A stretch of 56,429 nt of DNA, taken from the IMG/VR virus record IMGVR_UViG_3300032288_000938, positions 1 to 56,429 of that record; one strand, given 5' to 3'. The stretch's first letter is position 1; the number at the start of each line of letters is the position of its first letter. This DNA comes from a virus. Of this stretch, positions 1 to 56,429 are shown piece by piece. The translations under genes and the position numbers were made by a program. The notes below the pieces were generated by a model. The model saw only the letters and a list, made by a program, of their open reading frames with translations. It searched no databases and was not told the DNA's origin.

Positions 1-123
1 CTCCACAGTCTCTGCAACGTCTGCCGGGACAGTCTGGGGAGCCGGATTAACCCGGAAAGAAAGAAGGGGGGCCGAAGCCCCCCTCCGGTAGATTAGGCAG
101 CGCCGGGCGAACCGAAGATGCCA
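1..123. repeat. Terminal duplication, left copy
   Basis: These 123 bases recur exactly at 56307-56429. The copy holds the 3' end of the capsid gene, the terminator behind it and part of the following spacer. An identical overlap at both ends is what assembly of a circular or circularly permuted genome produces, giving a unit of about 56,306 bp. A true physical direct terminal repeat is possible but would normally be longer and would not end inside the capsid gene. Confidence 0.95.
65..84 (-). terminator. Terminator after the major capsid gene
   Basis: Read on the minus strand, an 8-bp perfect stem (AGGGGGGC/GCCCCCCT) closes on a TTCG tetraloop and is followed by TTCTTTCTTT. This is a textbook intrinsic terminator 9 bases behind the capsid stop codon. 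It would uncouple abundant capsid mRNA from the downstream genes that continue at 56283. The same sequence appears again at 56371-56390 in the duplicated end. Confidence 0.9.
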
Positions 124-1007
124 AGCGGGTCAGACACGCCGAAGCTATAACGCTCGCGAGCCTTATAGCGGACGTTGCCTGTGTCGAAGTCACCATCCAT
201 CGAGGTGGTCATCGGTGTACGCTCGAAGTGCTTCATGCCATTCGGAACGTCGGTGATGAGGAACCACGCATCGGTGTCGGTCAGATAGTGGTTGACCGAG
301 TAGCCTTCGGGGATCGTCCCGTTGGTCTTGATGGCGTTGATGTCGTTATCGGCAGTCGCCGTGCGGAGTTCAGTCTCCAGCAGGCGGGTAGCCACGAACA
401 TCAGGCTCGGCGGAACAATCAGCTTGCGGGGCTTAGCCGCAATCAAAAGACCGCGCTGATCCTTGAAGGCAGCGATCTGAATGACCGCAGCTTCGAGGGA
501 GGTTTCGTTCAGATCAGCAGCAGTGGAAGGTGTGTTGCTGTTGTAGCCACCACCAACCAGCGGATGCTGGGTGTTGAACAGGGTAACGCCGTCGCCGGAG
601 GTGAAAGCACCGCCAGAGAAGCCGTTGTTCAGCGGATAAGCCGCCTTGACCTGTTTCGTATAGGCCATACCACGGGCCAGAGCCTTGGTATAACGAGCCG
701 AAAGGCTGTCATACAGGTTGTCTTCCATCGCTTCTTCAGTGATGGAGAAACCCATAGCAATGGTTTCGTGGTTGTAACGAGCCGTCCAAGCTTCCTGCGC
801 ATTGTCATAGGCGATGGCAGAGCCTTCAGCCTTGACAGGAGCGGCAGCAAAGCCGGAAAGCTGGACTTCTTCTTCGAAAGAACGCTCAGAAGATTCCGTT
901 TCGTAAATTGCCTCATGCTCGTTTTCGTACTTCTTGTACTCAAGGCCAAACAGAGCGTTTAGGCCGGGGAGCAGTTCTTTGAGGAGTTGTGCGCGACTAA
1001 TAGCCAT
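93..1007 (-). CDS. Major capsid protein (Mu gpT-like)
   Basis: This 304-residue protein forms the icosahedral head shell. Length and composition fit an HK97-fold capsid subunit, and the N-terminal part (LLPGLNALFGLEY, then an acidic stretch, then MGFSITEEAMEDNLYDSL) resembles the Mu gpT-like major head subunit family. It lies at the end of the portal, GroES-like, scaffold-like, capsid gene series, the expected place for the shell protein, and an intrinsic terminator follows at once. The start ATG is 14 bases after the neighbouring stop. The exact capsid family is inferred from a visual match only. Confidence 0.8.
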   Translation of the reverse strand: MAISRAQLLKELLPGLNALFGLEYKKYENEHEAIYETESSERSFEEEVQLSGFAAAPVKAEGSAIAYDNAQEAWTARYNHETIAMGFSITEEAMEDNLYDSLSARYTKALARGMAYTKQVKAAYPLNNGFSGGAFTSGDGVTLFNTQHPLVGGGYNSNTPSTAADLNETSLEAAVIQIAAFKDQRGLLIAAKPRKLIVPPSLMFVATRLLETELRTATADNDINAIKTNGTIPEGYSVNHYLTDTDAWFLITDVPNGMKHFERTPMTTSMDGDFDTGNVRYKARERYSFGVSDPLGIFGSPGAA

Positions 1008-1021
1008 GTTCTATGACTCCC

Positions 1022-1693
1022 TTAGAATCCGACCGGGTTCAGGTAAGCATGGCCACCAACCAACGCTGTCGTGGTTGTAGTAGTGGCAGTGCCGCTGGAC
1101 GGGGTCGTTGTGGATGTAGACACGGCGTTAGGCATGTTCCACTTAACCAAAAGGTCAGTGTAAGCATCTCCAACCGTGGAGGTTGTGCTATCCACAAAGC
1201 CAACAATGCGAAGCGGAAGCGTCGCGGTCACATCATAGCTGTTATACACAGCCGAAGTTGTGGAGTTGCCGGTCAATGTGTCGCCGCTGGCCGCGTTAAG
1301 GGCAATGTTATTGCCGAGAGCGGTCTGCGGAACGGTGCCATCGGCCTGAACCTGAAATACCACATCAGGATCATCGACGACATAAGCGTAGGCGTCAGAA
1401 GCCACTGTGCCTGTCGGCCAGTATTGCTTGTAGACGGGGATCTTCAGGTTGGGATCCGTGTAGGCGCAGCCGACAAACACGCCCACAACGCCGGAAGTAG
1501 CCGGAGTTGTGACCGAAGTTGTGACCACAGCCTTACGAAGAGTACCGTCCGAATGAATGTAGACGGGGTCTCCGTAGAAGATATTGGCCGCGTACGCCGA
1601 GGCAATCTTAATAGAGCGGGTTGAACCAGCGTAGGGCTGACCGCCAATAAGATTCACGGGACGAAGACCATAGGGGGCTGCTGTAGTAGCCAT
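1022..1693 (-). CDS. Probable head decoration/structural protein
   Basis: This 223-residue protein is rich in Thr, Ser, Val and Ala, has no membrane segment, and ends with a Thr-rich linker (a run of TTTTTT) before VGGHAYLNPVGF. It starts MATTAAPYGLRPVNLIGGQPYAG, a common opening of head-associated structural proteins of phages with this type of capsid cluster. It sits directly upstream of the capsid gene in the same transcript. A beta-rich decoration or minor head protein is the likeliest role, and this is inference from position and composition. Confidence 0.55.
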   Translation of the reverse strand: MATTAAPYGLRPVNLIGGQPYAGSTRSIKIASAYAANIFYGDPVYIHSDGTLRKAVVTTSVTTPATSGVVGVFVGCAYTDPNLKIPVYKQYWPTGTVASDAYAYVVDDPDVVFQVQADGTVPQTALGNNIALNAASGDTLTGNSTTSAVYNSYDVTATLPLRIVGFVDSTTSTVGDAYTDLLVKWNMPNAVSTSTTTPSSGTATTTTTTALVGGHAYLNPVGF

Positions 1694-1734
1694 ATGTTTC
1701 TACCTCGTTGTTGAATTTGGCGGTCAGTTGCCTG

Positions 1735-2193
1735 TTAAGGTTTCTTTCCGCCGCCGAATGTAACCCTCGTAGACTTCTCTGGTTTCATGAGAGGCATACG
1801 CGGATCGTTTTCACGCATGAAGTTGCGGTCAACTGACTCTGATTGGTTCTCCGCCATCTGTTGATAATAAGCATTACGATCATCAACAATCTCTTGCGGG
1901 GCCTTGCAGAGAAGGAGTCCACCAACTTCAATATTGTCTTGGAACTGGGAATTACGGTCGCGAAGAGCCGTAATTTCTGGATGCTCCTCAGAGCGAACTG
2001 GTTCCCATCCCTGACGGAACTTGGAGCTTACGTTGGTGTTGTCCAGATTCCCACGAGAGGAAGTGCGGACCCAACGATAGGCATAACCATCCTTCCTATT
2101 CGGTTCAGGAAGAACCGAGGGAGGAGTCCAAGTCTTCTTGCGCGAACTAGCTTCGCGGTTCTCGCTTTCGCGAGGTGTGCGCTTATCAGCCAT
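1735..2193 (-). CDS. Conserved head-cluster protein, unknown function
   Basis: A 152-residue charged, soluble protein with a basic N-terminus (MADKRTPRESENREASSRKK) and an aromatic patch (GYAYRWVRTSSRGNLDNTNV). It lies between the scaffold-like gene and the decoration-like gene with a 2-base gap to the former, so it is co-expressed with head genes. I do not recognise a domain. Its consistent place before the capsid suggests a head assembly or head completion role, which is inference. Confidence 0.6.
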   Translation of the reverse strand: MADKRTPRESENREASSRKKTWTPPSVLPEPNRKDGYAYRWVRTSSRGNLDNTNVSSKFRQGWEPVRSEEHPEITALRDRNSQFQDNIEVGGLLLCKAPQEIVDDRNAYYQQMAENQSESVDRNFMRENDPRMPLMKPEKSTRVTFGGGKKP

Positions 2194-2195
2194 TT

Positions 2196-3487: not shown

Positions 3488-3550
3488 AAAGCGACTTTCC
3501 GGTGTCGTACCGTTGTGTTGGAGATAAGCGCGAACACAATCCCTAGCACA

Positions 3551-3559
3551 ATAATACCA
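3551..3559 (-). promoter_or_regulatory. Possible extended -10 promoter before GroES-like gene
   Basis: The minus strand reads TGGTATTAT, an extended -10 element, in the 96-base gap before the chosen GroES-like start. The same TGGTATNAT pattern occurs before terL and before the gene starting at 50213. No clear -35 is seen. This may be chance, since the frame through it is open. Confidence 0.3.
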
Positions 3560-3583
3560 CTCTGGGTGGCTAACCTCCAATAG

Positions 3584-7877: not shown

Positions 7878-7952
7878 TGGTGCCGGGTGAGAGGATTGAA
7901 CTCCCGACCTTCGGTTTACAAAACCGCTGCTCTACCGCTGAGCTAACCCGGC
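7878..7952 (-). tRNA. tRNA-Thr (UGU)
   Basis: A complete 75-base cloverleaf. The acceptor stem is GCCGGGT/ACCCGGC with discriminator A and an encoded CCA. The D arm is GCTC...GAGC, the anticodon loop is TTTGTAA with anticodon TGT, and the T arm is GGGAG/CTCTC around TTCAATC. The first pair of the anticodon stem is a G-A mismatch. It lies with tRNA-Pro in a gene-poor stretch between accessory genes and terL, and probably supplements translation of ACA codons. Confidence 0.95.
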
Positions 7953-8237: not shown

Positions 8238-8314
<77 letters not shown>

Positions 8315-10405: not shown

Positions 10406-10612
10406 TCAGTACCAGTTTTCGGTCTTGCTAAGGGCATCAACGACTTCCTGAACCGTGTGTTTAACGAACAGGGTATTTGTCTTCTTGCTCATCTTGTTCA
10501 GGGTGTGGGTAATAACCGAAACCCCGGCGTCCTCCGGATGTTGCTCCACAGCCATAATGTTGCTGGGACGAAGGGCGACAGGGACCCCCCGGAGAGAATT
10601 AAAGATAATCAT
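10406..10612 (-). CDS. Small protein, unknown function
   Basis: A 68-residue protein (MIIFNSLRGVPVALRPSNIM) with alternating strands and a C-terminal helix ending KTENWY. ATG 10612 is preceded by CAGGAG. It ends 2 bases before phoH, so the two may be translated together. The pattern LRPSNIMAVEQHPED resembles small phage proteins placed next to regulators, but no domain is certain. Confidence 0.6.
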   Translation of the reverse strand: MIIFNSLRGVPVALRPSNIMAVEQHPEDAGVSVITHTLNKMSKKTNTLFVKHTVQEVVDALSKTENWY

Positions 10613-11022
10613 TTTGACTCCTGCTTTGCCAATTTTGTATGTGTGGGACAATACGAACTCCCAGCTTCTTTGTCGTGGCCACAGAATAACAGATCTTGCG
10701 GCTCACCCGCAACCCACCGGCAGTGGTTTTGCTCCAACTCCCAGATCTTTACACCGACCCCGTTCAAGGGGATTACCTTGATTTTGGGCGGGCGCACGGG
10801 CTTGATGACCTTTGGTGGACGGAAGCGGATTTTAACCGGGAATCCGGATTTCTCCCGGTAAGGCAAACAAAGGCCGAGCCGATTAGCCCTACCAATAACT
10901 GCATTTCTTGTTTTCCCAAACCTTTTAGCCAGTTCCGTGGCTGACGTTTTCCGATAGTGAAGCCTAAGAATGTCGTCCTGCTCAGGCGTCCATTCAATTG
11001 AGACTACGTTTTGCCCGCTCAT
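10609..11022 (-). CDS. gcrA: GcrA-family transcription regulator
   Basis: A 137-residue protein. The N-terminal helix-turn-helix reads IEWTPEQDDILRLHYRK, then ATELAKRFGKTRNAVIGRANRLGL, the GcrA signature. The C-terminal domain has LEQNHCRWVAGEP, LLFCGHDKEAGSSYC and a final H, the cysteine/histidine pattern of GcrA. In alphaproteobacteria GcrA binds sigma-70 RNA polymerase at GANTC sites methylated by CcrM. A phage copy may redirect host transcription. ATG 11022 follows GGAGG. The family is largely limited to alphaproteobacteria and their phages. Confidence 0.88.
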   Translation of the reverse strand: MSGQNVVSIEWTPEQDDILRLHYRKTSATELAKRFGKTRNAVIGRANRLGLCLPYREKSGFPVKIRFRPPKVIKPVRPPKIKVIPLNGVGVKIWELEQNHCRWVAGEPQDLLFCGHDKEAGSSYCPTHTKLAKQESK

Positions 11023-11215
11023 GAAGTTCCTCCAAGATTGACATCTCAAGTGTCGCCACAAATGTCTTCATAAGGAAGGACGCATCAAGATCGCTTTCCA
11101 CATTGTGCAGAATAACGCTAGAGCTTCCCTCCTTAACCCCGAGGATAAGGACCACATCGAGATCCAGTCCCATAGCCTCTTTCAGGAGTTCCTTAGCGTT
11201 GCCTTCATCGGTCAT
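10994..11215 (-). CDS. Small acidic protein, unknown function
   Basis: A 73-residue protein (MTDEGNAKELLKEAMGLDLD) with a strand-helix-helix layout and no cysteines. It overlaps the GcrA-like start by 29 bases and touches the transglycosylase stop, so all three lie in one coupled transcript. No domain is recognised. Confidence 0.6.
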   Translation of the reverse strand: MTDEGNAKELLKEAMGLDLDVVLILGVKEGSSSVILHNVESDLDASFLMKTFVATLEMSILEELHERAKRSLN

Positions 11216-16268: not shown

Positions 16269-17147
16269 ATGAGTAAGTTCAACGCATACGCAGAAGTCAC
16301 CGCAACGGTTCTGGAAGCTATGAAAACAGGCTCGACGCCATGGGTGAAACCATGGCGCGATTTACCAGCGGATCAATCTGGAACGCCCCACAATGCCTTG
16401 ACGGGCCGGGCGTATCGAGGGATCAATAGCTTGTTAGGCTGGATCGCCGCTGAAAAGCATGGCTTTAGCTCGCAAGGTTGGCTCACCTATAAACAGGCGC
16501 TCGAATTGGGCGGCAATGTCAGGAAGGGCGAAAAGGCCCGGCTTCAGGTTGTTTTCTTTAAGCAATTGCAGATTAAAGAAAAGGACAAGGCCGGAAATGA
16601 CGCGCTAAAGAAAATTCCGCTCATCAAGCTTGCCAGTGTGTTCAATGTAGATCAATGCGAAGGCTTGACCTTGCCCAAGCGCAGGACGCCCGCGACACGC
16701 CCGACAAATGCGGATGATCTAGTCAAGGCCATGGCCGAACGGCTCAAAATGAGGCTAAGCATTGCGGGGAACCGGGCTTGTTATATGCCCACGCTCGACC
16801 TTGTACAAATGCCACCCGCCGGGGCGTTCAATGAAGATGCAAGCGCGCTGGCAACATTTTTCCATGAGGCCGGGCATTGGACCGGACATAAAACCCGGCT
16901 CAATCGGGATTTATCCGGGCGGTTCGGAAATGCGGCCTACGCTTTCGAGGAACTAGTCGCGGAATTGACTAGTGCTTTCCTTTGTGCGGCAAACAAGGTC
17001 AACGGGCAATTGCAGCACCCCGAATACTTGCGCCATTGGATCACGGTCATGGAGGGTGACGACAAAGCCTTCATGAAGGCCGCTTCCCTTGCGCAGGCTG
17101 CCGCTGACTATATCAACAAGAGCGAGGAAGTAGAGGAGAGCGAATAA
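16269..17147 (+). CDS. ardC: ArdC-type antirestriction protein
   Basis: A 292-residue protein of the ArdC family, which protects incoming DNA from restriction. The N-terminal half has the single-strand-DNA-binding domain (WVKPWRDLPADQSGTPHNAL, YRGINSLLGW, GGNVRKGEKA). The C-terminal half is a zincin-like metalloprotease domain with HEAGH at residues 199-203 and a third-ligand region (FEELVAELTSAF) about 25 residues on. Length matches full ArdC. AAGAAAGG precedes the ATG. Families like this are typical of plasmids, and its local GGCC/CCGG-rich composition hints at transfer. Confidence 0.9.
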   Translation: MSKFNAYAEVTATVLEAMKTGSTPWVKPWRDLPADQSGTPHNALTGRAYRGINSLLGWIAAEKHGFSSQGWLTYKQALELGGNVRKGEKARLQVVFFKQLQIKEKDKAGNDALKKIPLIKLASVFNVDQCEGLTLPKRRTPATRPTNADDLVKAMAERLKMRLSIAGNRACYMPTLDLVQMPPAGAFNEDASALATFFHEAGHWTGHKTRLNRDLSGRFGNAAYAFEELVAELTSAFLCAANKVNGQLQHPEYLRHWITVMEGDDKAFMKAASLAQAAADYINKSEEVEESE

Positions 17148-17148
17148 T

Positions 17149-17211
17149 CCCCTGCGGGGGCTGTCGGGGTTCTAAAAAAACCTTGACGGCCCCGCAAATC
17201 TTCGCTAATAA
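17149..17211 (+). promoter_or_regulatory. Repeated regulatory cassette, copy 1
   Basis: Right after the ardC stop comes a 23-base block (CCCCTGCGGGGG, then CTGTCGGGGTT) that can fold as a short CCCC/GGGG hairpin. It is followed by TTGACG, 17 bases, and TAATAA (17206-17211) in a conserved TTCGCTAATAA context. The whole arrangement recurs at 17958-18009. It looks like terminator plus promoter, giving the following gene its own start. Confidence 0.55.
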
Positions 17212-17241: not shown

Positions 17242-17955
17242 ATGACCGCATTTATCTTCACTAGAATTTCCCGCAATGCAAAGACCGGCCCTATCCCGGT
17301 CACAACTACCAGCAAAGATAGCTGCCCGAACGATTGCCCATTTCAAGGCTCGGGATGCTATGCAGAAGCAGGCCCGCTTGGGGCTATCTGGCGGGGCCTC
17401 ACTAAAGCCGGGCCGGATGCAGAATTTCCCAACGGGCGCAACAAAATGGCAAGCCTTGGGTTGGATGCTCTTTTGAAGCACATCCGCAAGCTCCCTGCCG
17501 GGCAATTGTGGAGACACAACCAAGCCGGGGATCTCGTACCCATGCCCGGCACTGGAACAATCGACCGCGACATTTTGAGCAAGCTTGTAGCCTCAAACAA
17601 AGGCAAGCGAGGTTTCACCTACACCCACCACAATGTGCTTCAAAACGAGCAGAACAGGCAGGCCGTGGCGGACGCTGTCAAGGAAGGTTTCGTTATAAAC
17701 CTTTCCGCCAATAACTTGCGCCATGCGGATGCTTTGGCCGATTTAGGAATTGCGCCGGTTTGCACGGTCCTACCCGCCAACGTGATGCAAAACACGACAA
17801 CACCCGCCGGGCGCAAGGTTGTAATCTGCCCGGCTGTTACACGTGATGATGTTTCATGTGAAACATGCGGGCTTTGCGCTAGGTTGCGGGAGGCCATTAT
17901 TGGTTTCCCGGCTCATGGTCCTTCTAAGGCTAGGGCTGGGGCTATTGCGGCATAA
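17242..17955 (+). CDS. Cysteine-cluster phage protein, unknown function
   Basis: A 237-residue protein with two cysteine groups: SCPNDCPFQGSGCYAEAG near residue 30, and ICPAVTRDDVSCETCGLC near residue 210. Such an arrangement suggests a metal or iron-sulfur site. It resembles a family of phage and plasmid proteins of unknown function with a CPxxCPF...GCYAE start (DUF7227 or gp88-like, from memory). AGGAG precedes the ATG. It is placed after ardC behind the repeated regulatory cassette, so may be an accessory defence or counter-defence gene. Confidence 0.7.
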   Translation: MTAFIFTRISRNAKTGPIPVTTTSKDSCPNDCPFQGSGCYAEAGPLGAIWRGLTKAGPDAEFPNGRNKMASLGLDALLKHIRKLPAGQLWRHNQAGDLVPMPGTGTIDRDILSKLVASNKGKRGFTYTHHNVLQNEQNRQAVADAVKEGFVINLSANNLRHADALADLGIAPVCTVLPANVMQNTTTPAGRKVVICPAVTRDDVSCETCGLCARLREAIIGFPAHGPSKARAGAIAA

Positions 17956-17957
17956 AT

Positions 17958-18009
17958 CCCCTGCGGGGGCTGTCGGGGTTTTGACTTTGTCTTGCGTGTT
18001 CGCTAATAA
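17958..18009 (+). promoter_or_regulatory. Repeated regulatory cassette, copy 2
   Basis: The same 23-base block as at 17149 is followed here by TTGACT, 17 bases, and TAATAA (18004-18009), again preceded by TTCGC. The spacer sequences differ while the hairpin, the two promoter boxes and their distance are kept, which implies selection for function. Confidence 0.55.
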
Positions 18010-20310: not shown

Positions 20311-20623
20311 TCTTTTTCTCCAACTCTGTCATTTCAACAATCATCCCCTTCGGGATTGCGATTCTGCCACCAGTAACGGAATCGCCTTCATCTTGGTAAA
20401 GATCCCGGATCACTAAGATGTGATCCTTTTTCTTCGCATACAAGATTCCAACGGTCATAACCTGAACGGGTTCAATTGTGGGATCCCCATGCTTCCATTC
20501 ATTAGTATCCTCAAGAACATCCTTCCAGATGACGAGAACCCAAGGCTTAGAAACCGAAGTCTTTGCTTTCTTTTTGCGGGGCTTGGTCCCCGAAGTCGTT
20601 GTATCGCGTTGTTCCGACATCAT
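20222..20623 (-). CDS. Basic protein overlapping primase-helicase end
   Basis: A 133-residue protein from ATG 20623 (MMSEQRDTTTSGTKPRKKKA), with a basic N-terminus, a central beta-rich part (WVLVIWKDVLEDTNEWKHGD, ILYAKKKDHILVIRDLYQDE) and a basic end. It overlaps the primase-helicase end by 77 bases in another frame and also overlaps the next gene by 89 bases. No domain is recognised; charge suggests nucleic acid contact. Confidence 0.6.
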   Translation of the reverse strand: MMSEQRDTTTSGTKPRKKKAKTSVSKPWVLVIWKDVLEDTNEWKHGDPTIEPVQVMTVGILYAKKKDHILVIRDLYQDEGDSVTGGRIAIPKGMIVEMTELEKKNDAGRNLKDGKRIDKRGPGEGLRPSEEKP

Positions 20624-22319
20624 AGTAAAGCCTCGTTTCGCCTTGCTTCCCAACCCATGAGAACCTCACCTTCCAAATGTGGATTTGGGCTTCCAGAGGG
20701 TTTTCGTCTGGGATGCGGTGGACAGTCATGCCGCAGTCAGCCTTGGCAAACCAAGCAGCAGAACCACTAATATCATAACCCTTTGGCACAGGCAACTTGC
20801 CATCTGCCCCGCGCTGGAGCTTGGTGGGATGCGCCACAAACCAGATATGGATGCCGTGAGCCATGCAGAATGACTTGATCCGGGTGAGCATCGTGCTGAT
20901 CCACTCGGTCTCAGACACATCACGGGGCCGTTCAATGAAATTGTAGGGGTCAATAACTGCCCCGCGAATACCCATCCGCAGCACTGCCGCCCGGAGCCGT
21001 TCGAGGATGCTGTCCAGATCAGACAATCCACCATCTTCTTGATGAAGAAAAACAAAACGGTCATTCACCCAATCAAACGCTGCTTGGAGTTCATGATCTG
21101 CCATGCGCTTCGTTGGGCCATCAAAGAATGGCTTGCGGACCCTCTTTGAGAGGAGCTTGGCAATATGCAGGCGGGGTTCATTCTCAAATGAGCAGATCGC
21201 AAAGGACCACTTCTCGCTCTCAGCGAGATTAACCATGATCTGATCTACAAACTCAGATTTGCCGGAAGATGGGATGCCGGTCACAACGGTCATCTGCCCC
21301 GGTACAATCGTGTAGAGTTCATCTACGTTATCATATCCGGTTGATGAACCCCGACCGATACCCTTCTCATAAAGTTCACGGATTTGGGCTTCAAACTTGC
21401 CAGCCTCATACAGACCATTGATCGGCCACGGGCTTGGCTTGCTTACAAAGTCTGCAAGGGCTTCCTTGCCATGCGACCTGAGATAATCATTCGCATCCTT
21501 GATGCCTTCCGGCCATTCAATACGCCAACAGCGGTCACGACCAACACGGCGCGCAATCTCTTCGGCAAGGGCCTCACCCTGACTGTCCTTATCAACGGCA
21601 ATCACAATGCGCTTGGCCTTGTCAATAAATGACTTTGCTGCCCACAAGAACCGGAACTTGCTGTCCTCTTCCGGGGTGATCTTGCCATCCACGACCTTCA
21701 TGGGCGCACCATTCGGGACGCTAACGGCAGTAACCCCGGCCTCCATCATGGCTGCCGCGTCAAGCTCGCCTTCAACAATGAAAAAATCCTCACCTTCCAC
21801 GGCATTGCCGATGTTGAAGAATGAGGGAGGCGATTGCCAGCATGTGAACGCCTTGCTTTCAATTGAACGGATTTTTGCACTAACAACCATGCCGTCCTTG
21901 TCAAAGTACGGGAACCCGATGGCGTCTTGCTCTTGACCTACTGCCGGGAAGAACTTGCGGGATTTGAATAAACGAAGCTTATCAGCCGTTTCTTTGGAGA
22001 TGCCCCGCTCTTTGAGCAACCAATCATAATGCTTCTGTTCAAGGGCAGGACATTCTGCGGGGTCCGTCTTTGCGACTGGTTTCTTTTCCATAGGCACGAC
22101 GTTATTCACCCAGCGATCCTCCTTGATTGATCCAGAAACTCCGCAGTGCTTGCAGTCGTAAACAATTCCCATCTCATCTCTCTTTACAGAGAGGCAACGA
22201 TCCTTGCGATTGTACTTGCGTTGATGAGAACAAAATGGACAAGTGGTTCTGGTCTGTCCATAGTTAAGAGCCATCATCTTGATGGCTTGTTCTTCATGCG
22301 AGATGTGCTTTGCGTACAT
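20547..22319 (-). CDS. Primase-helicase (T7 gp4 type)
   Basis: A 590-residue fused primase and replicative helicase. The zinc-binding domain has CPFCSHQRKYNRKDRC and YDCKHCG near residues 27-60. The TOPRIM core has FFIVEGELDAAAMM (about 180) and IVIAVDKDSQGEALA. The RecA-like helicase has Walker A TGIPSSGKSEF (about 350) and a Walker B-like AVIDPYNFIE, then HIWFVAHPTKLQR. It unwinds DNA and primes lagging strands at the fork. The frame extends to 22367, but ATG 22319 follows a G-rich site and removes a poor leader. No phage DNA polymerase was found to partner it. Confidence 0.92.
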   Translation of the reverse strand: MYAKHISHEEQAIKMMALNYGQTRTTCPFCSHQRKYNRKDRCLSVKRDEMGIVYDCKHCGVSGSIKEDRWVNNVVPMEKKPVAKTDPAECPALEQKHYDWLLKERGISKETADKLRLFKSRKFFPAVGQEQDAIGFPYFDKDGMVVSAKIRSIESKAFTCWQSPPSFFNIGNAVEGEDFFIVEGELDAAAMMEAGVTAVSVPNGAPMKVVDGKITPEEDSKFRFLWAAKSFIDKAKRIVIAVDKDSQGEALAEEIARRVGRDRCWRIEWPEGIKDANDYLRSHGKEALADFVSKPSPWPINGLYEAGKFEAQIRELYEKGIGRGSSTGYDNVDELYTIVPGQMTVVTGIPSSGKSEFVDQIMVNLAESEKWSFAICSFENEPRLHIAKLLSKRVRKPFFDGPTKRMADHELQAAFDWVNDRFVFLHQEDGGLSDLDSILERLRAAVLRMGIRGAVIDPYNFIERPRDVSETEWISTMLTRIKSFCMAHGIHIWFVAHPTKLQRGADGKLPVPKGYDISGSAAWFAKADCGMTVHRIPDENPLEAQIHIWKVRFSWVGKQGETRLYYDVGTTRYNDFGDQAPQKESKDFGF

Positions 22320-22707
22320 AACCCCCCCAGAGCCAAGCACAATACACGACCAACATTCCCCAGTCAATAAATATTTAGGTATTGCTCATGAGTTCAGACC
22401 GTTGAATGACAAGCTGATGACGACATAGGAGAACAACCCCCTTGCATTTAAGCAAGAGGGTTGGTCCGCCATGTGCTTGGTCTTGCTCATCGAGACGAGC
22501 CGCCGAACGACAAGGGCGATCTGCTAAACACCGCGATCACCGCCGCATCATCTTATCGGGAGATGGTGTTCTCCCGCTGGCCCCCACAATGCGATTGCAG
22601 ACTCGGGTTGTCGCTTTGGCCAGTACCCACGGTAACGACATATCCCACCGACCCCGCCGTTTGTCCGACAGCCAGTGGGCAACATTCTTAAGGTAACACG
22701 GCAGATG
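22320..22707. other. Structured non-coding gap inside the replication operon
   Basis: About 390 bases without a credible gene interrupt an otherwise tightly packed minus-strand operon. Features seen: a 12-bp stem CAACCCTCTTGC/GCAAGGGGGTTG on the minus strand (22434-22463, with one G-U pair that fixes that strand), a perfect CGGGAGA/TCTCCCG hairpin (22557-22576), and short GCTC/GAGC and GCGATC repeats near 22490-22540. It may be a non-coding RNA, the replication origin or the integration site. No tRNA or known riboswitch is recognised. Confidence 0.45.
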
Positions 22708-23070
22708 TCATTCCATCAAGATGTCAGAATCCGTGTTCTTTTCCTTATCTACATCTCCAAGGTTGTCATCTATATAAGAACGAATCAAGAACCTGAATGC
22801 CATCGCGCGCTTAAACGCAATTGCTTGTGTTTCTGCCGAGAGGATTGCATTCACGGTATGCCTGACCCGCGTCTGGGACATACCGGCCATGTCGCAAACG
22901 ATCCCAAAATCGTCGCTTCTCATCCATTCAATGACTTCTTTTTTGACTTTGGGGTTGGTTGACGCAGCGTCAATCGCACATTGCATGACTACCGAAATCC
23001 ACAACCTTTGCTCTGGGGTGAATACAGTGTCATCGCCCTTGGCAAGCGGCTCATAGATGCTGCCTTCCAT
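22708..23070 (-). CDS. Small protein with a possible helix-turn-helix
   Basis: A 120-residue soluble protein (MEGSIYEPLAKGDDTVFTPE). The middle reads DDFGIVCDMAGMSQTRVRHT, then VNAILSAETQ, which has the spacing of a helix-turn-helix. The end is acidic. ATG 23070 overlaps the RusA stop (TGATG) with GAGGTG just before. It could be a regulator of this block, but the motif is weak. Confidence 0.6.
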   Translation of the reverse strand: MEGSIYEPLAKGDDTVFTPEQRLWISVVMQCAIDAASTNPKVKKEVIEWMRSDDFGIVCDMAGMSQTRVRHTVNAILSAETQAIAFKRAMAFRFLIRSYIDDNLGDVDKEKNTDSDILME

Positions 23071-23423
23071 CACAGCACCTCTACCAGAATATCAGAGCGG
23101 GGGTTTTCTTTGTCCAAGTGCCAGTAAACGTGGCGTTCTTTGATTTGCCTGTCGTTTTTATAAATGCAATCCTGCATCAAATCCAAGATCAGTGACTCGT
23201 CCAGATCGGGGCGACGCGAGGCATACCAGATGTGGATGGTGACGCGCAAATCTCCCTCAAGGAGGGGGTCCAAGACAGGACATTGCGCCTTGAACATCTT
23301 CCCGTAGTTCAGGGCTTTTTCCGATTTTATGAAAAATTTACCAGTCCATCGCCGGGAATTTGCCTTTGAGGCCGGTTCACCTAAGATTGTGAACTGGATA
23401 ATGCTTGACTCATGGTTTTTCAT
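23070..23423 (-). CDS. rusA: RusA-type Holliday junction resolvase
   Basis: A 117-residue protein of the RusA family, which cuts four-way junctions during recombination-linked replication. Visible motifs are FTILGEPASKANSRR at the N-terminus, and RRPDLDESLILDLMQDCIY with NDRQIKERHVYWH, containing the acidic residues that bind metal in RusA. ATG 23423 is chosen; a start at 23447 would overlap the divergent exonuclease start. There is almost no gap between these two divergent genes, so their promoters must lie inside coding sequence. Confidence 0.88.
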   Translation of the reverse strand: MKNHESSIIQFTILGEPASKANSRRWTGKFFIKSEKALNYGKMFKAQCPVLDPLLEGDLRVTIHIWYASRRPDLDESLILDLMQDCIYKNDRQIKERHVYWHLDKENPRSDILVEVL

Positions 23424-23433
23424 AGGGTATTTC
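23405..23433 (+). promoter_or_regulatory. Possible promoter inside rusA for the recombination block
   Basis: TTGACT (23405-23410, 5/6) and TATTTC (23428-23433, 3/6) are 17 bases apart on the plus strand. The predicted start is about 23441, one base before the exonuclease ATG, so the message would be leaderless. This agrees with the absence of a ribosome site there, but the -10 is weak. Confidence 0.35.
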
Positions 23434-23441
23434 AATGTTCC

Positions 23442-24374
23442 ATGCAAATCACCAATCGCTACAATCTTCCCGCTGCAATCGTTAACAACGTATTGAATGA
23501 CGAGTATTCTCGCGGCGATGCCGTGATTTCCGTCACTCAGTTGTTGAACTCGCCACGCATAGTATTACTACAGCGTGTAAACGAAAGCAAGATGGTGGTT
23601 GACGTTGTGGATCGGCTGCCGTCCATGATTGGCACCGCCATGCACAAGGTCTTGGAAAAAGGAGCAAATCCAGAGGACATTGTTGAGGAGCGGTTCTTTC
23701 TGGACATCCTTGGGTGGCGCGTTAGCGGGGCTGTGGATCTTCAAACCCCGAAACCAGACGGCACTTGGGAAATCAATGACTACAAGATGACCTCCGTCTA
23801 TTCGGTGATGGCCGAGAAGTGGGAATGGGAGGCACAACTTAACATGTATGCCTACCTTATGCGACAATCTAAGGGTAGGCGGGTGTCTTCCATGAAGATC
23901 GTGGCCATCCTTAAGGACTGGAACCGCAAGCAGGGGGCGTTTAAGACCGATTACCCAGAAGCCCCGATTGTTGTGGTGGACATCCCGGTTTGGGATGACG
24001 CCCGGCAGGAAGCCTATATTGAGAGCCGTGTTTTTGAACATCAGAAGAATGCGAACGCGCTTGACAGTGGCGAGCCAATAGACTACTGTACAGACCAAGA
24101 ACGATGGCTCAGGGGCGAGAAGTGGGCTGTCATGAAAAAGGGCCGCAAGTCTGCGGTAAAGCTTTTTGATTCGGAGGAAGAAGCGAATGGATGGATTGGC
24201 AGCCAAGAGGACAGCAACATCCTCTCCGCAGAACACCGCCCCGGAGAACCCATCCGTTGCTCTGGCAACTATTGCGGGGTCGCACAATGGTGCAAACAGT
24301 GGCTTGAGCAATCTGGTCAAGGCGCTGGTGAAGGCTCAGTCGGAATTGAAGAACGCGAGCCTGAACAAGACTAA
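23442..24374 (+). CDS. PD-(D/E)XK exonuclease (RecB/Cas4-like)
   Basis: A 310-residue nuclease. After an N-terminal domain (SVTQLLNSPRIVLLQ, GTAMHKVLEKG) comes the core GAVDLQTPKPDGTWEINDYK, where D and the DYK match the PD-(D/E)XK active site, then WEWEAQLNMYAYLMR (a QxxxY motif). Cysteines at the C-terminus (RCSGNYCGVAQWC) with a nearby YCTD could hold an iron-sulfur cluster as in Cas4/AddB. Paired with the Erf-type annealing protein it would make single strands for recombination. Its last 188 bases also encode the Erf N-terminus in another frame. Confidence 0.8.
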   Translation: MQITNRYNLPAAIVNNVLNDEYSRGDAVISVTQLLNSPRIVLLQRVNESKMVVDVVDRLPSMIGTAMHKVLEKGANPEDIVEERFFLDILGWRVSGAVDLQTPKPDGTWEINDYKMTSVYSVMAEKWEWEAQLNMYAYLMRQSKGRRVSSMKIVAILKDWNRKQGAFKTDYPEAPIVVVDIPVWDDARQEAYIESRVFEHQKNANALDSGEPIDYCTDQERWLRGEKWAVMKKGRKSAVKLFDSEEEANGWIGSQEDSNILSAEHRPGEPIRCSGNYCGVAQWCKQWLEQSGQGAGEGSVGIEEREPEQD

Positions 24375-24756
24375 CCCGCATTTCAAATCCCGTTATGCGG
24401 ACCTTGCGGAAATCCGCGATACGGTTATGCCCGTGCTGTGTAAGCATGGGATTGCGCTTGTGCAGTACACACAGATCGGGGCTGGGGGGTTCTATCTGGT
24501 GACGCGCTTGCTACATGAGAGCGGCGAAATGATCGAGAGCCGTTTCCCTCTTCCTGAGAACACAGACAAGCCGCAGCAGATGGGTAGCGCGATTACCTAC
24601 GCCCGTCGCTATATGATGGCTTCGATTTGCGGGATCACTGCGGAGGAGGATGACGATGGCAATGCGGCGCAGGCTACCAATGAAAGGGGATCGTCCAAGT
24701 CAGGAGGATCCAAAGCCAAACCCGCCACCGCCGCAGCGGACGGAGTCGTATTCTGA
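24187..24756 (+). CDS. erf: Erf-type single-strand annealing protein
   Basis: A 189-residue protein of the ERF superfamily, which pairs complementary single strands and circularises phage DNA. Motifs: SGLSNLVKALVKAQSELKNA, then NPHFKSRYADLAEIRDTVMP, GIALVQYTQIG, and AITYARRYMMASICGI at the end of the core, followed by an acidic EEDDDGNA and a Lys-rich tail. ATG 24187 has GGAGG nine bases upstream. The start lies 188 bases inside the exonuclease gene, an unusually long overlap that would couple translation of the two. Confidence 0.9.
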   Translation: MDGLAAKRTATSSPQNTAPENPSVALATIAGSHNGANSGLSNLVKALVKAQSELKNASLNKTNPHFKSRYADLAEIRDTVMPVLCKHGIALVQYTQIGAGGFYLVTRLLHESGEMIESRFPLPENTDKPQQMGSAITYARRYMMASICGITAEEDDDGNAAQATNERGSSKSGGSKAKPATAAADGVVF

Positions 24757-27322: not shown

Positions 27323-27761
27323 GATCCGCGATATTGCGATTAACTTCGAGGCCGTGAAGGTCTCAATGAACCAAGACAAGAATGGCCTGATGCTCAAGCT
27401 CGCCATTCATCCCTCTGACGCGCCGCAAGATCTTGTTGTTGCACCCGTCGGCACCCGCTATATGATTGCTGCCGTAATGCTGAACGACCAAGACGAACCA
27501 ACGATGGGCGTCAAGAAACGTGAAGCGGACACGGTTATATCAATTGCAGGGGCCTTATGTCGTAACAATCGCTTTCAGGATTGGCTGGAGGCAACGGGCC
27601 TTGCGCTTGAGAGTTCCGAGAAGGCTGCCGTTGATGCTGTTCGTGATTTCTGTGGCATCAAATCGCGCAGCGAGTTCTCGACAAACGAAAGCGCGCGCAC
27701 TAAGTTCATGGCGCTGCGTGAACAGTTTGAAGCTGATTATAAAAAGGGGAAGGTAAGATGA
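27315..27761 (+). CDS. Conserved phage protein, unknown function
   Basis: A 148-residue protein from ATG 27315 (MTEIRDIAINFEAVKVSMNQ). The first half is strand-rich (NGLMLKLAIHPSDAPQDLVV, PVGTRYMIAAVMLND) and the second helical (AAVDAVRDFCGIKSRSEF). Proteins of this look occur beside recombination genes of other phages but have no named role. It overlaps the integrase start by 4 bases. Confidence 0.65.
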   Translation: MTEIRDIAINFEAVKVSMNQDKNGLMLKLAIHPSDAPQDLVVAPVGTRYMIAAVMLNDQDEPTMGVKKREADTVISIAGALCRNNRFQDWLEATGLALESSEKAAVDAVRDFCGIKSRSEFSTNESARTKFMALREQFEADYKKGKVR

Positions 27762-28570
27762 AAGTAGTTGAAGTCGTCCGCGAATACGCCCGGTCCCGTC
27801 GGTTCACAAACCTTTCCGATAGCACAAAGCGCCAGTATATCTCATCAATGAATGAGATCGAGAAGGCGGTTGGCCAAATGGATATTCAGAGCGTCAAGAG
27901 GCGGGATCTTGTCCGGGCATTTGAGGCATTGGGCGATACGCCAGCCATGGCTAATCGCTTCTGCCGGGTGTGCAGCGTTGTATTCAACTATGCAGTGGAG
28001 ATGGAGTATTGCGGTGGGAACCCCGCCCATCGGCTGACCCCGTTTAAGCTCGGCACGTGGAAGCAATGGACGAAGGAAGAAGTGGACAAGGTGATCGCCC
28101 TTAACCACCCTATCGTAAGTGTGGCTGTTGCTCTGGCCTATTACACGGCGCAGAGAGAGGCAGACATTCTTAAGATGAAATGGTCAGACATCAAGGACGG
28201 GGTTTTGTATGTTAAGCAAAACAAAACCGGGGCTGTCCTTGAGATTATGGTTGCGCCGCAGTTGCAGGCCATTCTGGATAAGCTGCCTAAGACAGGGGAA
28301 CACATCATCCGTTCCAAGGCAGGGGGCCTCGTAACCGGGCCATCGTTCCGGAATATGCTCAAGCGCGTCACGCGGTCTGTCGGGGTTGACGCCCCGTTCC
28401 ACGGATTGCGTAAGACTGTTGGATCGCGCTTGGCAGAGAAGGGCAAAAGCGCAAGTCAAATCGCCGCCATCCTCGGGCATCGTACCCTAAAAATGGCGGC
28501 GCTTTATACGCAACAGGCTGACAGCAAGAAGCTTATCGCCTCTGCTGTCACCTCCCTAGCTGCTGATTGA
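27758..28570 (+). CDS. int: Tyrosine integrase
   Basis: A 270-residue site-specific recombinase. An N-terminal core-binding domain (residues 1-90) is followed by the catalytic domain with R133 (YYTAQREAD), K156 (KQNKTGA), H215 and R218 (FHGLRKT), H241 (ILGHRTLKMA) and nucleophile Y250. It lacks an arm-binding zinc finger and is shorter than lambda Int. It would insert the phage into the host or resolve circular forms. No excisionase or repressor is recognised, and no attP is evident next to it because the gene overlaps its convergent neighbour by 23 bases. Confidence 0.93.
   Translation: MKVVEVVREYARSRRFTNLSDSTKRQYISSMNEIEKAVGQMDIQSVKRRDLVRAFEALGDTPAMANRFCRVCSVVFNYAVEMEYCGGNPAHRLTPFKLGTWKQWTKEEVDKVIALNHPIVSVAVALAYYTAQREADILKMKWSDIKDGVLYVKQNKTGAVLEIMVAPQLQAILDKLPKTGEHIIRSKAGGLVTGPSFRNMLKRVTRSVGVDAPFHGLRKTVGSRLAEKGKSASQIAAILGHRTLKMAALYTQQADSKKLIASAVTSLAAD
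28519..28550. repeat. Inverted repeat at the convergent overlap
   Basis: TGACAGCA and TGCTGTCA are perfect inverted copies around 16 bases, inside the end of int and touching the stop codon of the opposite polyvalent-protein gene. It may serve as a weak two-way terminator where two operons collide, or be a recombinase site. Confidence 0.4.
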
Positions 28571-34500: not shown

Positions 34501-35132
34501 CGAGCAAGGATCTCCTCAAGGGGTCCCATGAACCTACCGAGAGGAATAATATCCGTGAGGCCGATAGCCCCGCCAAGACGCTGTGATGCGAGGCGGTCTT
34601 CTGGGGAGACTTCAGCCCCCGTCTGAGCCTCTTCAGCCATGCGACTTTGGATTTGTTGAGTTGTCCCAAGGGGGACCGACTGCGCACCGGCTGCGGCATA
34701 TCCAAGTCCGCGAGCCAGCTTAGCACCCGTTCCAAGAACCTTTGCCCCTTTTGCAATAGCAGTGCCGGGGACAAGAAATGAAGCAAGGCTACCAAGGCCA
34801 CCAGCGACAGCTTCAGCCGTCGTGGCTTCCTTGGTTGGGTCAATCCCGAGAATGTCTTGAGTTATTTTTTTAGCGCCGGTACTAAATTTCCCTGCTGCCG
34901 TTTCTTCTGGCTTGGCAGAGAAAAGACCAGCAACGCCAAGGGGTACGTCAGTAAACCCGGTAACAAACCCCTCTGCCAAAGACGGCAATACTCCTCCGCG
35001 CCCGGTGGGTGCAGAACCCTGTCCAATTTTGGGGAGGATGTCGGTTTCAATTGCAGATGCGATCTGCGTGTCCGACATTGAGTCCGGAAACTCGACATTC
35101 CCGAGTCCGGGGACCTCAACGATCTTTGGCAT
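28548..35132 (-). CDS. Giant polyvalent ejection protein
   Basis: A 2194-residue protein with several domains, probably packaged in the head and injected with DNA. The start GLGNVEFPDSMSDTQIASAI is typical of internal virion proteins. A Pro/Ala-rich linker spans about 400-580. A zincin-like site HEVIH is at 675-679. A methyltransferase motif VLDYGAGLGLGA is near 856, with DAVVSLNVVNVL after it. An ADP-ribosyltransferase-like region (LVVHHFGSF, GMHFGT) starts near 1057 and ends YIAFKATQIKS. The last 900 residues include RMVPFLNARIQGFD near 1817, as in the large polyvalent protein-associated domain LPD38, a hydrophobic stretch near 1880, and a terminal coiled coil. Activities are predicted only. 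Confidence 0.8.
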   Translation of the reverse strand: MPKIVEVPGLGNVEFPDSMSDTQIASAIETDILPKIGQGSAPTGRGGVLPSLAEGFVTGFTDVPLGVAGLFSAKPEETAAGKFSTGAKKITQDILGIDPTKEATTAEAVAGGLGSLASFLVPGTAIAKGAKVLGTGAKLARGLGYAAAGAQSVPLGTTQQIQSRMAEEAQTGAEVSPEDRLASQRLGGAIGLTDIIPLGRFMGPLEEILARVPVSKAGGVAKTVENAVKRALVSATEEGAQEAIAQGAQNLVEQGYYNPDLDITEGILSNAGVGGAAGGTLDVILQLMAGRKAGKMRTAFTQLEKENARQAAEKTPERIRAEAIAGRDELLKNAPSGEISIKLADNTEKGFNYKIVDSTGKPAATFSTKDAAFLAAEQYEKDSPGTVTFVRPTIAEAARTTKGKTTKQEKAQGKKIAKELKAAGALAPAPAQLPTTPVGQATTGAAIAETIQQVGATPIQAAEIATPAVPKKGKKKRIAPVEAPPPEGVAPPPVSTTAAEIPPPQTQPAISQAEQPAIPGGIPVRPPMASIFPSPAATVETPTAPQATPAVAPVSPTEAPPAAVQEQPAAKPPKEYKPSLQALFKPVVTAPEGVQKLQEFEAKKDAVSKALNARLAPIVGKNVRIQLDDVVRQGKGIAEGAASPAGDVIYLSYNLYDPNLTTDQMVDKLFDVMNHEVIHSLSNLGLFKGGELSTLFKAAERTKYQGNQFTYYDRAVRMYATVEGYKNPDGSLNEEMIHEEAVAEMFRDARAGKLKLEGTPKGVFGRVVEFFKRLFNGYRDAKIGQIFKDIEAGKIGAREARAVEGGVRKLSALPEDEGDIPGQEGSDSTQRAITIGSYRKAANYIKENLPLARNVLDYGAGLGLGADAMREENSAPVDTYEINTKKWESKIPPSFTKSSQIKDRYDAVVSLNVVNVLEPELRDQVVRDIVKKVAPGGIAIIGSRAFKDDIDRTKNFKKAKEPKAYWVFERKEKKYVYQKGYDGQELVNYVKSLVPDGYTVEKGPGVGKTSVVVTAPQAAARKFSIAPAVETKEFKNWFKRSKVLDEQGKPLVVHHFGSFNEDEDIPRSGMHFGTRQAAIDRATGKRADDAAMGVETYQNDDGLWHFDTDGVTSEELGFVGFQDQETALAHGRSNVLEMIANDDTDPLELGTVTSAYLSMQNPKRMADLGGANGEWDQAIAQAKSEGYDGIVYRNQYEDKGSDSYIAFKATQIKSTSNRGTFSPEEENIKLSVIPSITTEIKTAVDIAENVTKSGEATQADVDLANQSVRDAVRKLSTIPQVIPMPPEMEDANKRIFAATHVASTPGEKLMGVLGGISSREGIGRLADMFRVYYVQKTGQITKKEREAFLTGALNPDEAQFAEYSATQAADMMQRSSHYTVEAAYHGAPVIRGLNEKREAVSISKGADPNSAYMYIERDQADSPLKVLERIITGGPGGGDLTEQFRSYAVAQVSKRRLSEGKEIPEDITQEYIDAADALAEQYPIIKEAFESYQRFNTKLLEAVRDSGYLSQELFEEFTDQQNYYSMYRQLEEGDVVQETSGGLASRIRFKPYEGSTTGNLMADPIVAMMHNVAFWNNVILRTLATQKAFRVGEATGVVKRLRAFEDEDGNVTIETPSRADGFDDKTFYTYINGVEVPFASRDPLFTIGLSGNDFASPSLFLELAGMPANFLREMVTRDPGFMVANLMRDSVSTWVLAGSGANPFQTFKGFVSALNSSASFEALRSYGIVGSFDEAQKPMAKIVAGMRKKLTRVQGLPNMTSALTGAWDKLGSWSEASDAATRIAVYDAAKRDGASDFTAAYRALSIMNFSRSGHSAGLRMWTRMVPFLNARIQGFDVLYTGMKAAAGVVTGREQLSFERQRGTHVLVRGMALTAAAMALSLLLEDDEDYQQLPQYIKDANILIPIPGQKGQYFQIPKPFEAGFLFMTVPQTFYDVAMGNRSMRSATKLMFNQFSSTFGFNPIPQAALPIVENMINRDFYTGQPLVSPGMEQLDPSLQYNASTSYVARGLSQLSGFLPFNYDFEEGRFVPISPIKLDNLISGYGGPIMSYIGMGIGGAAYMFGSDNQGLPVAGSQLPVIRRFFVDARDKQPQAATEAYELYQLVDKVNRTISRLKKMGDTEALREYREENINVLRVGKQVRKMADNLNNIRAQIRRLEADKVTPMSQKLEKLRELRSREARVTQRIDEINQQLGR

Positions 35133-53421: not shown

Positions 53422-53422
53422 A

Positions 53423-55490: not shown

Positions 55491-55502
55491 TCGAGCCTCC
55501 GG

Positions 55503-55784
55503 TTAAGCCTGATAGAACACCGTCACCGAAGTGGCGTTGGTGAGGTCGAGATACACGCTTGACTCAAAAAGGATTCCGTCATTTGGAATAATGATGTTGC
55601 CGGAGTAGTTGGCTCCGATAGCAACAGACAAGCGTGTCGTGCCGCTGGAACCACCATCCTTAAGGACAACAGATCCGGCAGTAGTTGTTGTAACGTGGAC
55701 ACCTTTCACACGGGCGCGGGAGGCATAAATGTCCCCGTCGTCCGTGCGAGTGGTGGCCTGAATATTGGATGTGTTAATAGCCAT
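55503..55784 (-). CDS. Small beta-rich structural protein
   Basis: A 93-residue protein: MAINTSNIQATTRTDDGDIY, ASRARVKGVHVTTTTAGSVV, LKDGGSSGTTRLSVAIGANY. It is almost all short strands with Gly/Thr-rich turns and ends TNATSVTVFYQA. This is the usual look of small head decoration or surface proteins. It stands alone between two similar beta-rich genes. Confidence 0.6.
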   Translation of the reverse strand: MAINTSNIQATTRTDDGDIYASRARVKGVHVTTTTAGSVVLKDGGSSGTTRLSVAIGANYSGNIIIPNDGILFESSVYLDLTNATSVTVFYQA

Positions 55785-55806
55785 ATTGGCCTCCTACGAG
55801 GCCGAA

Positions 55807-56283
55807 TTACGACACAGCGGCGCTGAACGGCGTAGCGACGGTTCCAGAGCCAACCAGAACTGCACTCACGATCCAAAGATTCGTGGCGGCGTCCTTAAGC
55901 TCAACATAAGACCCAGCCAGACCGCCAGTTGTGCTGCCGTTCATGGTGATGGTGTCGGATGTAGCTGTGGTATAGAAAGCACCCGGAGTCGAGGCAGTCA
56001 CGACCGCAGCACCCTGCATGACATCGGTGGCGTCGGCCACAGAGATCGTTGTGGAGTTGCTGGTCACAGTTGTGCCGAGAAGGATGCGATAGACGGCCTG
56101 AGTGCCGGTCGCGGCTGGGAGCGTAATGGCCGTGCCAGCGGCGCGATTGATGTTGGCTGTGATGCCGTTGTAGCTGTCATCGAGCGTGAGCGTGGAAGCT
56201 GTGATCGAAGACGAAACGGAGTCTGTGCCAGAAATGAAACCGGCCTGAGATACGACTGGGCCGGAGAATGTAGTGCGAGCCAT
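55807..56283 (-). CDS. Beta-rich structural protein after the capsid
   Basis: A 158-residue protein: MARTTFSGPVVSQAGFISGT, then LDDSYNGITANINRAAGTAI and TLPAATGTQAVYRILLGTTV. The opening and the AGTAITLPAATGTQAVYRI segment are typical of phage surface proteins with a repeating beta fold. It is the first gene behind the capsid and its terminator, across the circle junction, and could decorate the shell. A TCTCCTGC ribosome-like stretch precedes it. Confidence 0.6.
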   Translation of the reverse strand: MARTTFSGPVVSQAGFISGTDSVSSSITASTLTLDDSYNGITANINRAAGTAITLPAATGTQAVYRILLGTTVTSNSTTISVADATDVMQGAAVVTASTPGAFYTTATSDTITMNGSTTGGLAGSYVELKDAATNLWIVSAVLVGSGTVATPFSAAVS

Positions 56284-56306
56284 GATTGCCTCTTGCAGGA
56301 GATAGG

Positions 56307-56429
56307 CTCCACAGTCTCTGCAACGTCTGCCGGGACAGTCTGGGGAGCCGGATTAACCCGGAAAGAAAGAAGGGGGGCCGAAGCCCCCCTCCGGTAGATT
56401 AGGCAGCGCCGGGCGAACCGAAGATGCCA
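56307..56429. repeat. Terminal duplication, right copy
   Basis: Identical to positions 1-123. It includes the capsid 3' end and the terminator (56371-56390). Removing it closes the circle, so the 56284-56306 and 1-92 stretch becomes one 115-base spacer between the capsid gene and the gene at 55807-56283. Confidence 0.95.

What the first reader, a model, noticed from the sequence alone, without database searches (positions are those of the whole stretch)
1..56429. Heptamer CGGGGTT/AACCCCG is many-fold over-represented on both strands
Reading by eye I find roughly 30 copies of CGGGGTT and 30 of AACCCCG on the plus strand (examples 5087, 8011, 13691, 13769, 17166, 17976, 25859, 28019, 33508, 37335, 44508, 48094, 53787), against about 7 expected in total for any heptamer in random sequence of this length. 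The word appears in different codon frames (Thr-Pro, Gly-Val, Asn-Pro) and in non-coding gaps, so codon use does not explain it. A longer form, GTCGGGGTT, occurs about 12 times on the plus strand and about once on the minus strand. It could be a host Chi-type site, a packaging or replication word, or a modification site.
Basis: partly seen in the sequence, partly recalled or inferred. Interest (0 to 1): 0.75.

Follow-up and report, generated by a model that had tools for sequence, protein, structure and literature searches.

The report
Selected CGGGGT word in phage genomes
One lineage of phages keeps a six-letter DNA word about four times more often than chance on both strands; the likeliest reason is that it is the start signal for the phage's own primer-making replication enzyme, although that is not proven.

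Summary
In detail: CGGGGTT occurs 30 times on the plus strand and 32 on the minus strand, against 8-9 expected in all. The true unit is the hexamer CGGGGT (114 against 29.5; top 6-mer) followed by T or C. Codon use does not explain it: 47 copies in genes against 7.5 after synonymous shuffling. Two related phage groups share it (primases 56-100% identical to the window's); most other relatives do not. It is about equally enriched in both coding orientations and kept more often than words of the same letters. Best reading: CGGGGT-Y is the recognition site of the phage's T7 gp4-like primase-helicase (T7: GGGTC, primer pppACCC). For: the GGGT-pyrimidine form, about one site per kb per strand, and GGGT words in some relatives. 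Against: co-inheritance with other genes, spacing not reproducibly even, only a weak and inconsistent signature in T7. Confidence 0.4. A second word (CTGCCG, or GTGCCG in the sister group) is enriched and unexplained.

The parts
1..56429. Genome-wide word CGGGGT (55 plus, 59 minus), of which CGGGGTT 30 plus and 32 minus; the heptamer positions are listed
20547..22367 (-). T7 gp4-like primase-helicase (zinc finger, Toprim, DnaB-type helicase); candidate reader of the word
24166..24756 (+). Erf-like single-strand annealing protein, same replication and recombination module
23412..24374 (+). PD-(D/E)XK exonuclease, same module
23070..23447 (-). RusA-like resolvase
27758..28570 (+). Tyrosine integrase (probably temperate phage)
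10609..11061 (-). GcrA-family protein, pointer to an alphaproteobacterial host
17139..17171 (+). First copy of the repeated element that ends in CTGTCGGGGTT
17948..17980 (+). Second copy of the repeated element that ends in CTGTCGGGGTT

Best explanation
CGGGGT followed by T or C is the template site at which the phage's own T7 gp4-like primase starts RNA primers. On this reading the base after the core is the cryptic base that is read but not copied, the T templates the first A, and the primer begins pppACCC(CG), as T7 primase makes pppACCC at GGGTC. Such a site would occur by chance about once per 4 kb per strand, and selection has raised it to about one per kb on each strand. Shown: the enrichment, its independence of codon use, its conservation, its restriction to one lineage, and the enzyme family of the protein. 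Inferred: that this protein reads the word, the primer, and the selective reason.
For: Hexamer excess on both strands with a pyrimidine after the core (97 of 114) and G/T before it; the same base after the core and an AT-richer 3' flank in two further sets of 278 and 218 sites. T7 primase reads (G/T)2GTC with a 3'-flank contribution (PMC12839067) and prefers GGGTC, primer pppACCC (PMC11109968 abstract); in this family the zinc finger sets the site, and related enzymes differ (PMC10557236 passages). The protein is T7 gp4-like by sequence and predicted fold. The word clade is one clade of the primase tree, and zinc-finger residue 63 is R/K in the 13 clade rows and V/I in all 86 outside rows that have a residue there. 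Enrichment is about equal in both orientations. Other GGGT words in some relatives: CCGGGT 30 against 6.1 and 28 against 8.9, ACGGGTC 19 against 2.5. Plus-strand spacing in the window is more even than in 99.5% of 421 control words.
Against: Word, primase and terminase are co-inherited and cannot be separated. Of 16 primase groups outside the word clade and its sister L236, only two have an NNGGGT word among their five top words. T7 itself shows a weak signature that does not follow its lagging strand: GGGTC 25 against 24.6 on that strand and 48 against 30.2 on the other; TGGTC 65 against 41.7 and 48 against 30.8; GTGTC 34 against 17.2 and 29 against 31.4. Spacing over eight contigs is not more even than chance (Fisher P 0.34; 0.72 without the window). 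The zinc finger has no excess of clade-specific residues (8 of 44 columns against 80 of 493, P 0.68), and L236, left out of that count, also has R at residue 63 with only a weak word (30 against 16.3). A second word is as strong in group B.
Confidence: 0.4

Rival explanations
1. CGGGGT(T) is a Chi-type word of the unidentified host: its recombination nuclease (AddAB or RecBCD) stops at it, and the phage carries many copies to protect or recombine its DNA.
For: G-rich asymmetric word on both strands; lambdoid phages over-represent Chi (median O/E 3.12 without recombinase, 2.50 with recombinase and no inhibitor; PMC3784561 passages); word-bearing contigs carry an integrase.
Against: No genome among 744 distinct ones has a comparable excess. 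The window phage has its own Erf and exonuclease; by PMC3784561 such phages over-represent Chi less. Sites are flat along the window (KS P 0.90 and 0.46), whereas lambdoid Chi is concentrated between origin and cos; in G779 the minus strand departs mildly (P 0.04). Among 80 viral loci with two close copies none reached the window's fourfold hexamer excess.
Confidence: 0.15
2. Another protein of the phage that binds double-stranded DNA (nucleoid-like, partition, regulatory or recombination protein) uses the word as a dispersed site.
For: Near-equal enrichment in both orientations; at most a slight intergenic excess (78 against 63 in eight contigs); word-bearing contigs share Erf, integrase, an HD hydrolase and a small protein (22708-23073) that were not found in G785 and G786.
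Against: No such protein identified; L236 (G784) has integrase, Erf and the hydrolase but only a weak word.
Confidence: 0.2
3. A context-dependent mutation or codon-context bias of these phages creates the word without any reader.
For: Strand symmetry; other words are enriched too, and CCCCC (45 against 113.3) and CAGCTC (3 against 26.0) are depleted. In conservation the word ranks only 10th of 165 and 5th of 188 words with five G/C, so other words are kept as well or better.
Against: The bias is specific to the whole hexamer: AGGGGT 18, GGGGGT 19, TGGGGT 26 against CGGGGT 114, and CGGGGA 45, CGGGGG 28, CGGGGC 61. It survives synonymous shuffling in all frames. Sites are kept about twice as often as same-letter words in group A and 1.5 times in group B.
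Confidence: 0.2

Closest known systems
T7 gp4 primase recognition site (GGGTC, (G/T)2GTC)
   Same: Core GGGT plus a pyrimidine at its 3' side; many dispersed copies; phage encodes a T7 gp4-like enzyme; AT-rich 3' flank
   Different: Longer core (CGGGGT), T preferred over C after it, about fourfold genome enrichment on both strands, whereas T7 shows only a weak and inconsistent one; activity untested here
Plant organellar Twinkle primase site set by its zinc finger
   Same: A T7 gp4 homologue with a shifted recognition sequence (PMC10557236, passages)
   Different: Site shown biochemically there; here inferred from word counts
Chi sites (RecBCD/AddAB), including Chi-rich lambdoid phages
   Same: Short G-rich word over-represented in a phage at a similar ratio (PMC3784561)
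   Different: No host genome with the word found; flat along the window; phage has its own annealing protein and exonuclease

Membership tests
T7 gp4-type primase-helicase (the candidate reader) | N-terminal zinc finger CxxC...CxxC | tested here: met
   CPFC and CKHC in the window; first pair and second pair cysteines invariant in 25 aligned relatives
T7 gp4-type primase-helicase (the candidate reader) | Toprim primase core with acidic motifs | tested here: met
   Pfam Toprim families over their cut-offs; VEGELD, VDKD and KDAND motifs, aligned to T7 gp4
T7 gp4-type primase-helicase (the candidate reader) | DnaB-type helicase domain | tested here: met
   DnaB_C; PHROG 239
T7 gp4-type primase-helicase (the candidate reader) | Overall fold | tested here: met
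   Foldseek ranks 1-7 are T7 gp4 chains; VIA-align aligns 461 residues to 1q57_A at Z 27.9, rmsd 6.6, without the zinc finger
T7 gp4-type primase-helicase (the candidate reader) | Makes primers at a specific ssDNA site | not testable with these tools
   needs purified protein
Primase recognition site of the T7 type | Site form GGGT plus restricted 3' base | tested here: met
   T 62, C 35, G 15, A 2 after CGGGGT; the same in two further sets
Primase recognition site of the T7 type | Word changes with the primase among relatives | tested here: inconclusive
   Word clade is one clade on the primase tree but also on the terminase tree
Primase recognition site of the T7 type | Layout on the lagging-strand template | tested here: inconclusive
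   Both strands equal; replication direction unknown; spacing signal not reproducible
Chi site | Over-represented in the host genome | tested here: inconclusive
   Not found in 744 distinct genomes, but the host is unidentified
Chi site | Stops the host nuclease in one orientation | not testable with these tools
   needs a nuclease or DNA survival assay

The most novel reading that the evidence does not exclude
The lineage has an unusually stringent T7-type primase whose start site CGGGGT-Y is held at about one copy per kb per strand by selection, so that primase specificity, and its drift to CCGGGT or ACGGGT in relatives, can be read from phage genomes by word counting. The second word (CTGCCG or GTGCCG) would then be a second start site or another replication word.
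Probability: 0.3. Interest if true: 0.7.

Novelty: new variant of a known kind. Interest (0 to 1): 0.5.

Why it matters
If the word is a primase site, the start-site specificity of uncharacterised phage primases could be predicted from genome sequence and checked with one simple assay, and selection on priming sites would become measurable. Four searches of the held paper library for primase sites in phage genomes (0, 2, 0 and 7 papers, seen as listings, one of them read in passages) showed no report of such an over-represented site; subscription journals are mostly not held. If it is Chi instead, it would be a Chi word for a group of bacteria for which one search returned a single paper, seen only as a listing.

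Tried and rejected
Codon use: rejected by synonymous shuffling. Promoter, terminator or operator role for the word as a whole: at most a slight intergenic excess (78 against 63 in eight contigs, each contig a little above expectation); two copies (17163, 17972) lie in a repeated element behind genes, which the terminator scan did not list. A strand-specific 9-mer GTCGGGGTT: real in the window, not in relatives. Even spacing as proof of priming: holds on the window's plus strand, weaker on the minus strand (2.1% of controls inside, 19% with ends), not over eight contigs. Excess of clade-specific residues in the zinc finger: not found. T7 as positive control: weak and inconsistent. Host identification: a genome-contig scan by terminase gave four short contigs in three metagenome-assembled genomes with unrelated labels, not taken as hosts; a primase profile found four matches in 385 genomes, judged distant by their partial coverage; tRNA and T-loop searches gave no candidate integration site; phage and plasmid searches gave only matches below 60% identity, or none. 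A paper search for the bare heptamer matched 1,848 papers, 30 listed, none seen to concern such a word.

Rows dropped before counts: duplicate primase or terminase rows, clusters under 15 kb or under 12 kb of coding sequence, and L236, L144 and overlapping loci. The trees hold 35 of 100 and 23 of 83 rows whose word status was undetermined, mostly short or AT-rich contigs; word labels used thresholds of my own.
Full report
What was checked. The window is a virus record of 56,429 bases, GC 0.53. CGGGGTT occurs 30 times and AACCCCG 32 times on the plus strand. Expected totals rise from 8.2 (order 0) to 9.1 (order 2), 13.9 (order 3), 32.2 (order 4) and 53.5 (order 5). The rise shows where the signal sits: the hexamer CGGGGT, 114 copies against 29.5 under order 2, the top 6-mer for orders 0 to 3 and fourth for order 4.

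Not codon use. Shuffling synonymous codons among 47 genes keeps the proteins and the codon usage and gives 7.5 heptamers (sd 2.6, maximum 13 in 200) against 47; for the hexamer 25.6 against 92. In a full ranking with this control CGGGGT is first of the 6-mers (z 12.8) and CTGCCG second (z 7.5). Copies occur in all frames, sense and antisense, and 15 of 62 are not inside one of those genes. With automatic genes in eight contigs there is at most a slight intergenic excess (78 against 63 expected in all; window 13 against 12.2).

What the word looks like. In the window the core CGGGGT is followed by T 62, C 35, G 15, A 2, and preceded mostly by G or T. Two further sets from other contigs (278 and 218 sites) show the same base after the core (T 0.51-0.57, C 0.30-0.31, A 0.02-0.04) and an AT-richer 3' flank (0.52 and 0.56 against backgrounds of 0.47 and 0.48). 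The G/T preference before the core recurs, but in the second set C is commonest directly before it. The second set is group B below; the first mixes group A with terminase relatives that resemble group B in their second word.

Who else has it. Relatives were found by terminase (best 80 loci) and primase (58 and best 80 loci, some shared). Clustered by primase, group A (the window and four contigs at 72% or more; L097/L230 at 66-67% behaves alike) has CGGGGT 207 against 51.8, and group B (eight contigs, 56-60% identical to the window's primase) 219 against 57.9. The largest other cluster (30 contigs, 52-56%) does not have it among its top words. On a primase tree of 100 rows the word-bearing rows form one clade of 14, with two marginal rows outside (L111 9 against 3.4, L175 7 against 1.2); on a terminase tree of 83 rows one clade of 8, with L175 outside. 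Word and trees agree, but primase and terminase cannot be told apart as carriers. In aligned relatives the sites are kept more often than words of the same letters: group A 92 of 245 (0.376) against 434 of 2439 (0.178); group B 550 of 1048 (0.525) against 3438 of 9676 (0.355); among words with five G/C it ranks 10 of 165 and 5 of 188, so some other words are kept as well (the pairs are not independent). The enrichment factor is nearly the same in both coding orientations (group A 118/34.2 and 100/30.5; group B 174/62.1 and 110/42.7).

Host side. A GcrA-family protein (PF07750, E 8e-21) points to an alphaproteobacterial host (inference; of 14 control genomes Caulobacter but also Sulfolobus rang with this model). 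The heptamer was counted in 398 genomes of one phylum and 385 of the class of G178, a GcrA carrier; 39 are in both. The highest density is about 0.38 per kb (G004, control word equally common), the highest ratio to the reversed word 3.9 (G505); the window has 1.1 per kb and 62 against 6. In samples of 200, 100, 60 and 40 kb from G178, G342, G389 and G241 the hexamer ranks 152, 344, 1046 and 352 under order 2.

Candidate reader. The gene at 20547-22367 (minus) encodes a T7 gp4-like primase-helicase: PHROG 239, only T7 gp4 among solved structures by sequence, over residues 118-578, Toprim and DnaB_C domains, a model of mean pLDDT 84.7 and pTM 0.52 whose seven best Foldseek matches are T7 gp4 chains. 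T7 primase starts at 5'-(G/T)2GTC-3' with a 3'-flank contribution (PMC12839067, abstract, outline and passages) and prefers GGGTC, primer pppACCC (PMC11109968, abstract). In this family the zinc finger sets the recognised sequence, as swaps between T7 and plant enzymes show, and related phage enzymes differ (T7 GTC, SP6 GCA) (PMC10557236, passages). Residue 63 of the zinc finger is R or K in the 13 word-clade primases compared and V or I in all 86 of 87 rows outside that have a residue there. L236, left out of that count, has R and a weak word. The finger has no overall excess of clade-specific columns (8 of 44 against 80 of 493; P 0.68).

Why primase ranks first, and what speaks against it. 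The site has the GGGT-pyrimidine form; an expected density of about one per 4 kb per strand has been raised to about one per kb (55 and 59 sites); relatives show other GGGT words (CCGGGT 30 against 6.1 in 15 contigs and 28 against 8.9 in L148; ACGGGTC 19 against 2.5 in G412). Against this: of 16 primase groups outside the word clade and L236 only those two groups have such a word among their five top words; T7 itself has only a weak signature that does not follow its lagging strand; spacing is even on the window's plus strand (0.5% of 421 control words as even) and less so on the minus strand (2.1% inside, 19% with ends), but not over eight contigs. A second word, CTGCCG in group A (244 against 94.8) and GTGCCG in group B (397 against 129.8), is unexplained. 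L236 (G784), on the sister branch, has integrase, Erf and GcrA but only a weak word, so temperate lifestyle alone does not carry it.

Chi as rival. Lambdoid phages do over-represent Chi (median O/E 3.12 without recombinase, 2.50 with recombinase and no inhibitor; PMC3784561, abstract and passages), so a Chi-like role is possible in principle, the more so as the word-bearing phages are probably temperate. The flat distribution in the window (in G779 the minus strand departs mildly, P 0.04), the own Erf and exonuclease, and the lack of a bacterial genome with the word in the samples speak against it. It remains open until the host is known.

Verdict. A real, lineage-specific and probably selected phage word.

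Noticed in passing
window, genome-wide: Second word CTGCCG (often CTGCCGG): 87 against 39.7 in genes after synonymous shuffling; group A 244 against 94.8, while sister group B has GTGCCG 397 against 129.8.
   Followed up: partly
group B contigs (L231-L238, L297-L305): Third word GTTTACA/TGTAAAC, 91 against 12.6 in genes, not prominent in the window.
   Followed up: no
L118, L120, L115, L175 and other AT-rich relatives (primase 49-52%): GGCGGTA 38 against 3.7 and, with codon control, CCGGGT 33 against 4.0 and CCCGGG 14 against 0.4.
   Followed up: partly
L114, L138, L149: Words around CCGG (TCCGG, CCGGT, CCGGAT) strongly over-represented in AT-rich phages.
   Followed up: no
Pelagibacter phage HTVC023P (L152): GGTGG very strongly over-represented (195 against 41.9, z 23.5); not controlled for codon use.
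   Followed up: no
10609-11061, minus strand: A phage-borne GcrA-family cell-cycle regulator (PF07750, E 8e-21); no match in the phage collection by tblastn.
   Followed up: partly
16269-17147, plus strand: ArdC-like antirestriction protein, with plasmid relatives up to about 44% identical, many from alphaproteobacteria.
   Followed up: no
28548-35132, minus strand: Open reading frame of 2194 residues, not analysed by family searches.
   Followed up: no
7878-7952 and 8238-8314, minus strand: tRNA-Thr and tRNA-Pro genes upstream of the terminase; L009 has four tRNA genes there.
   Followed up: no
window, coding regions: Depleted words after codon control: CCCCC 45 against 113.3, CAGCTC 3 against 26.0, CAGCTG 1 against 19.7.
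   Followed up: no
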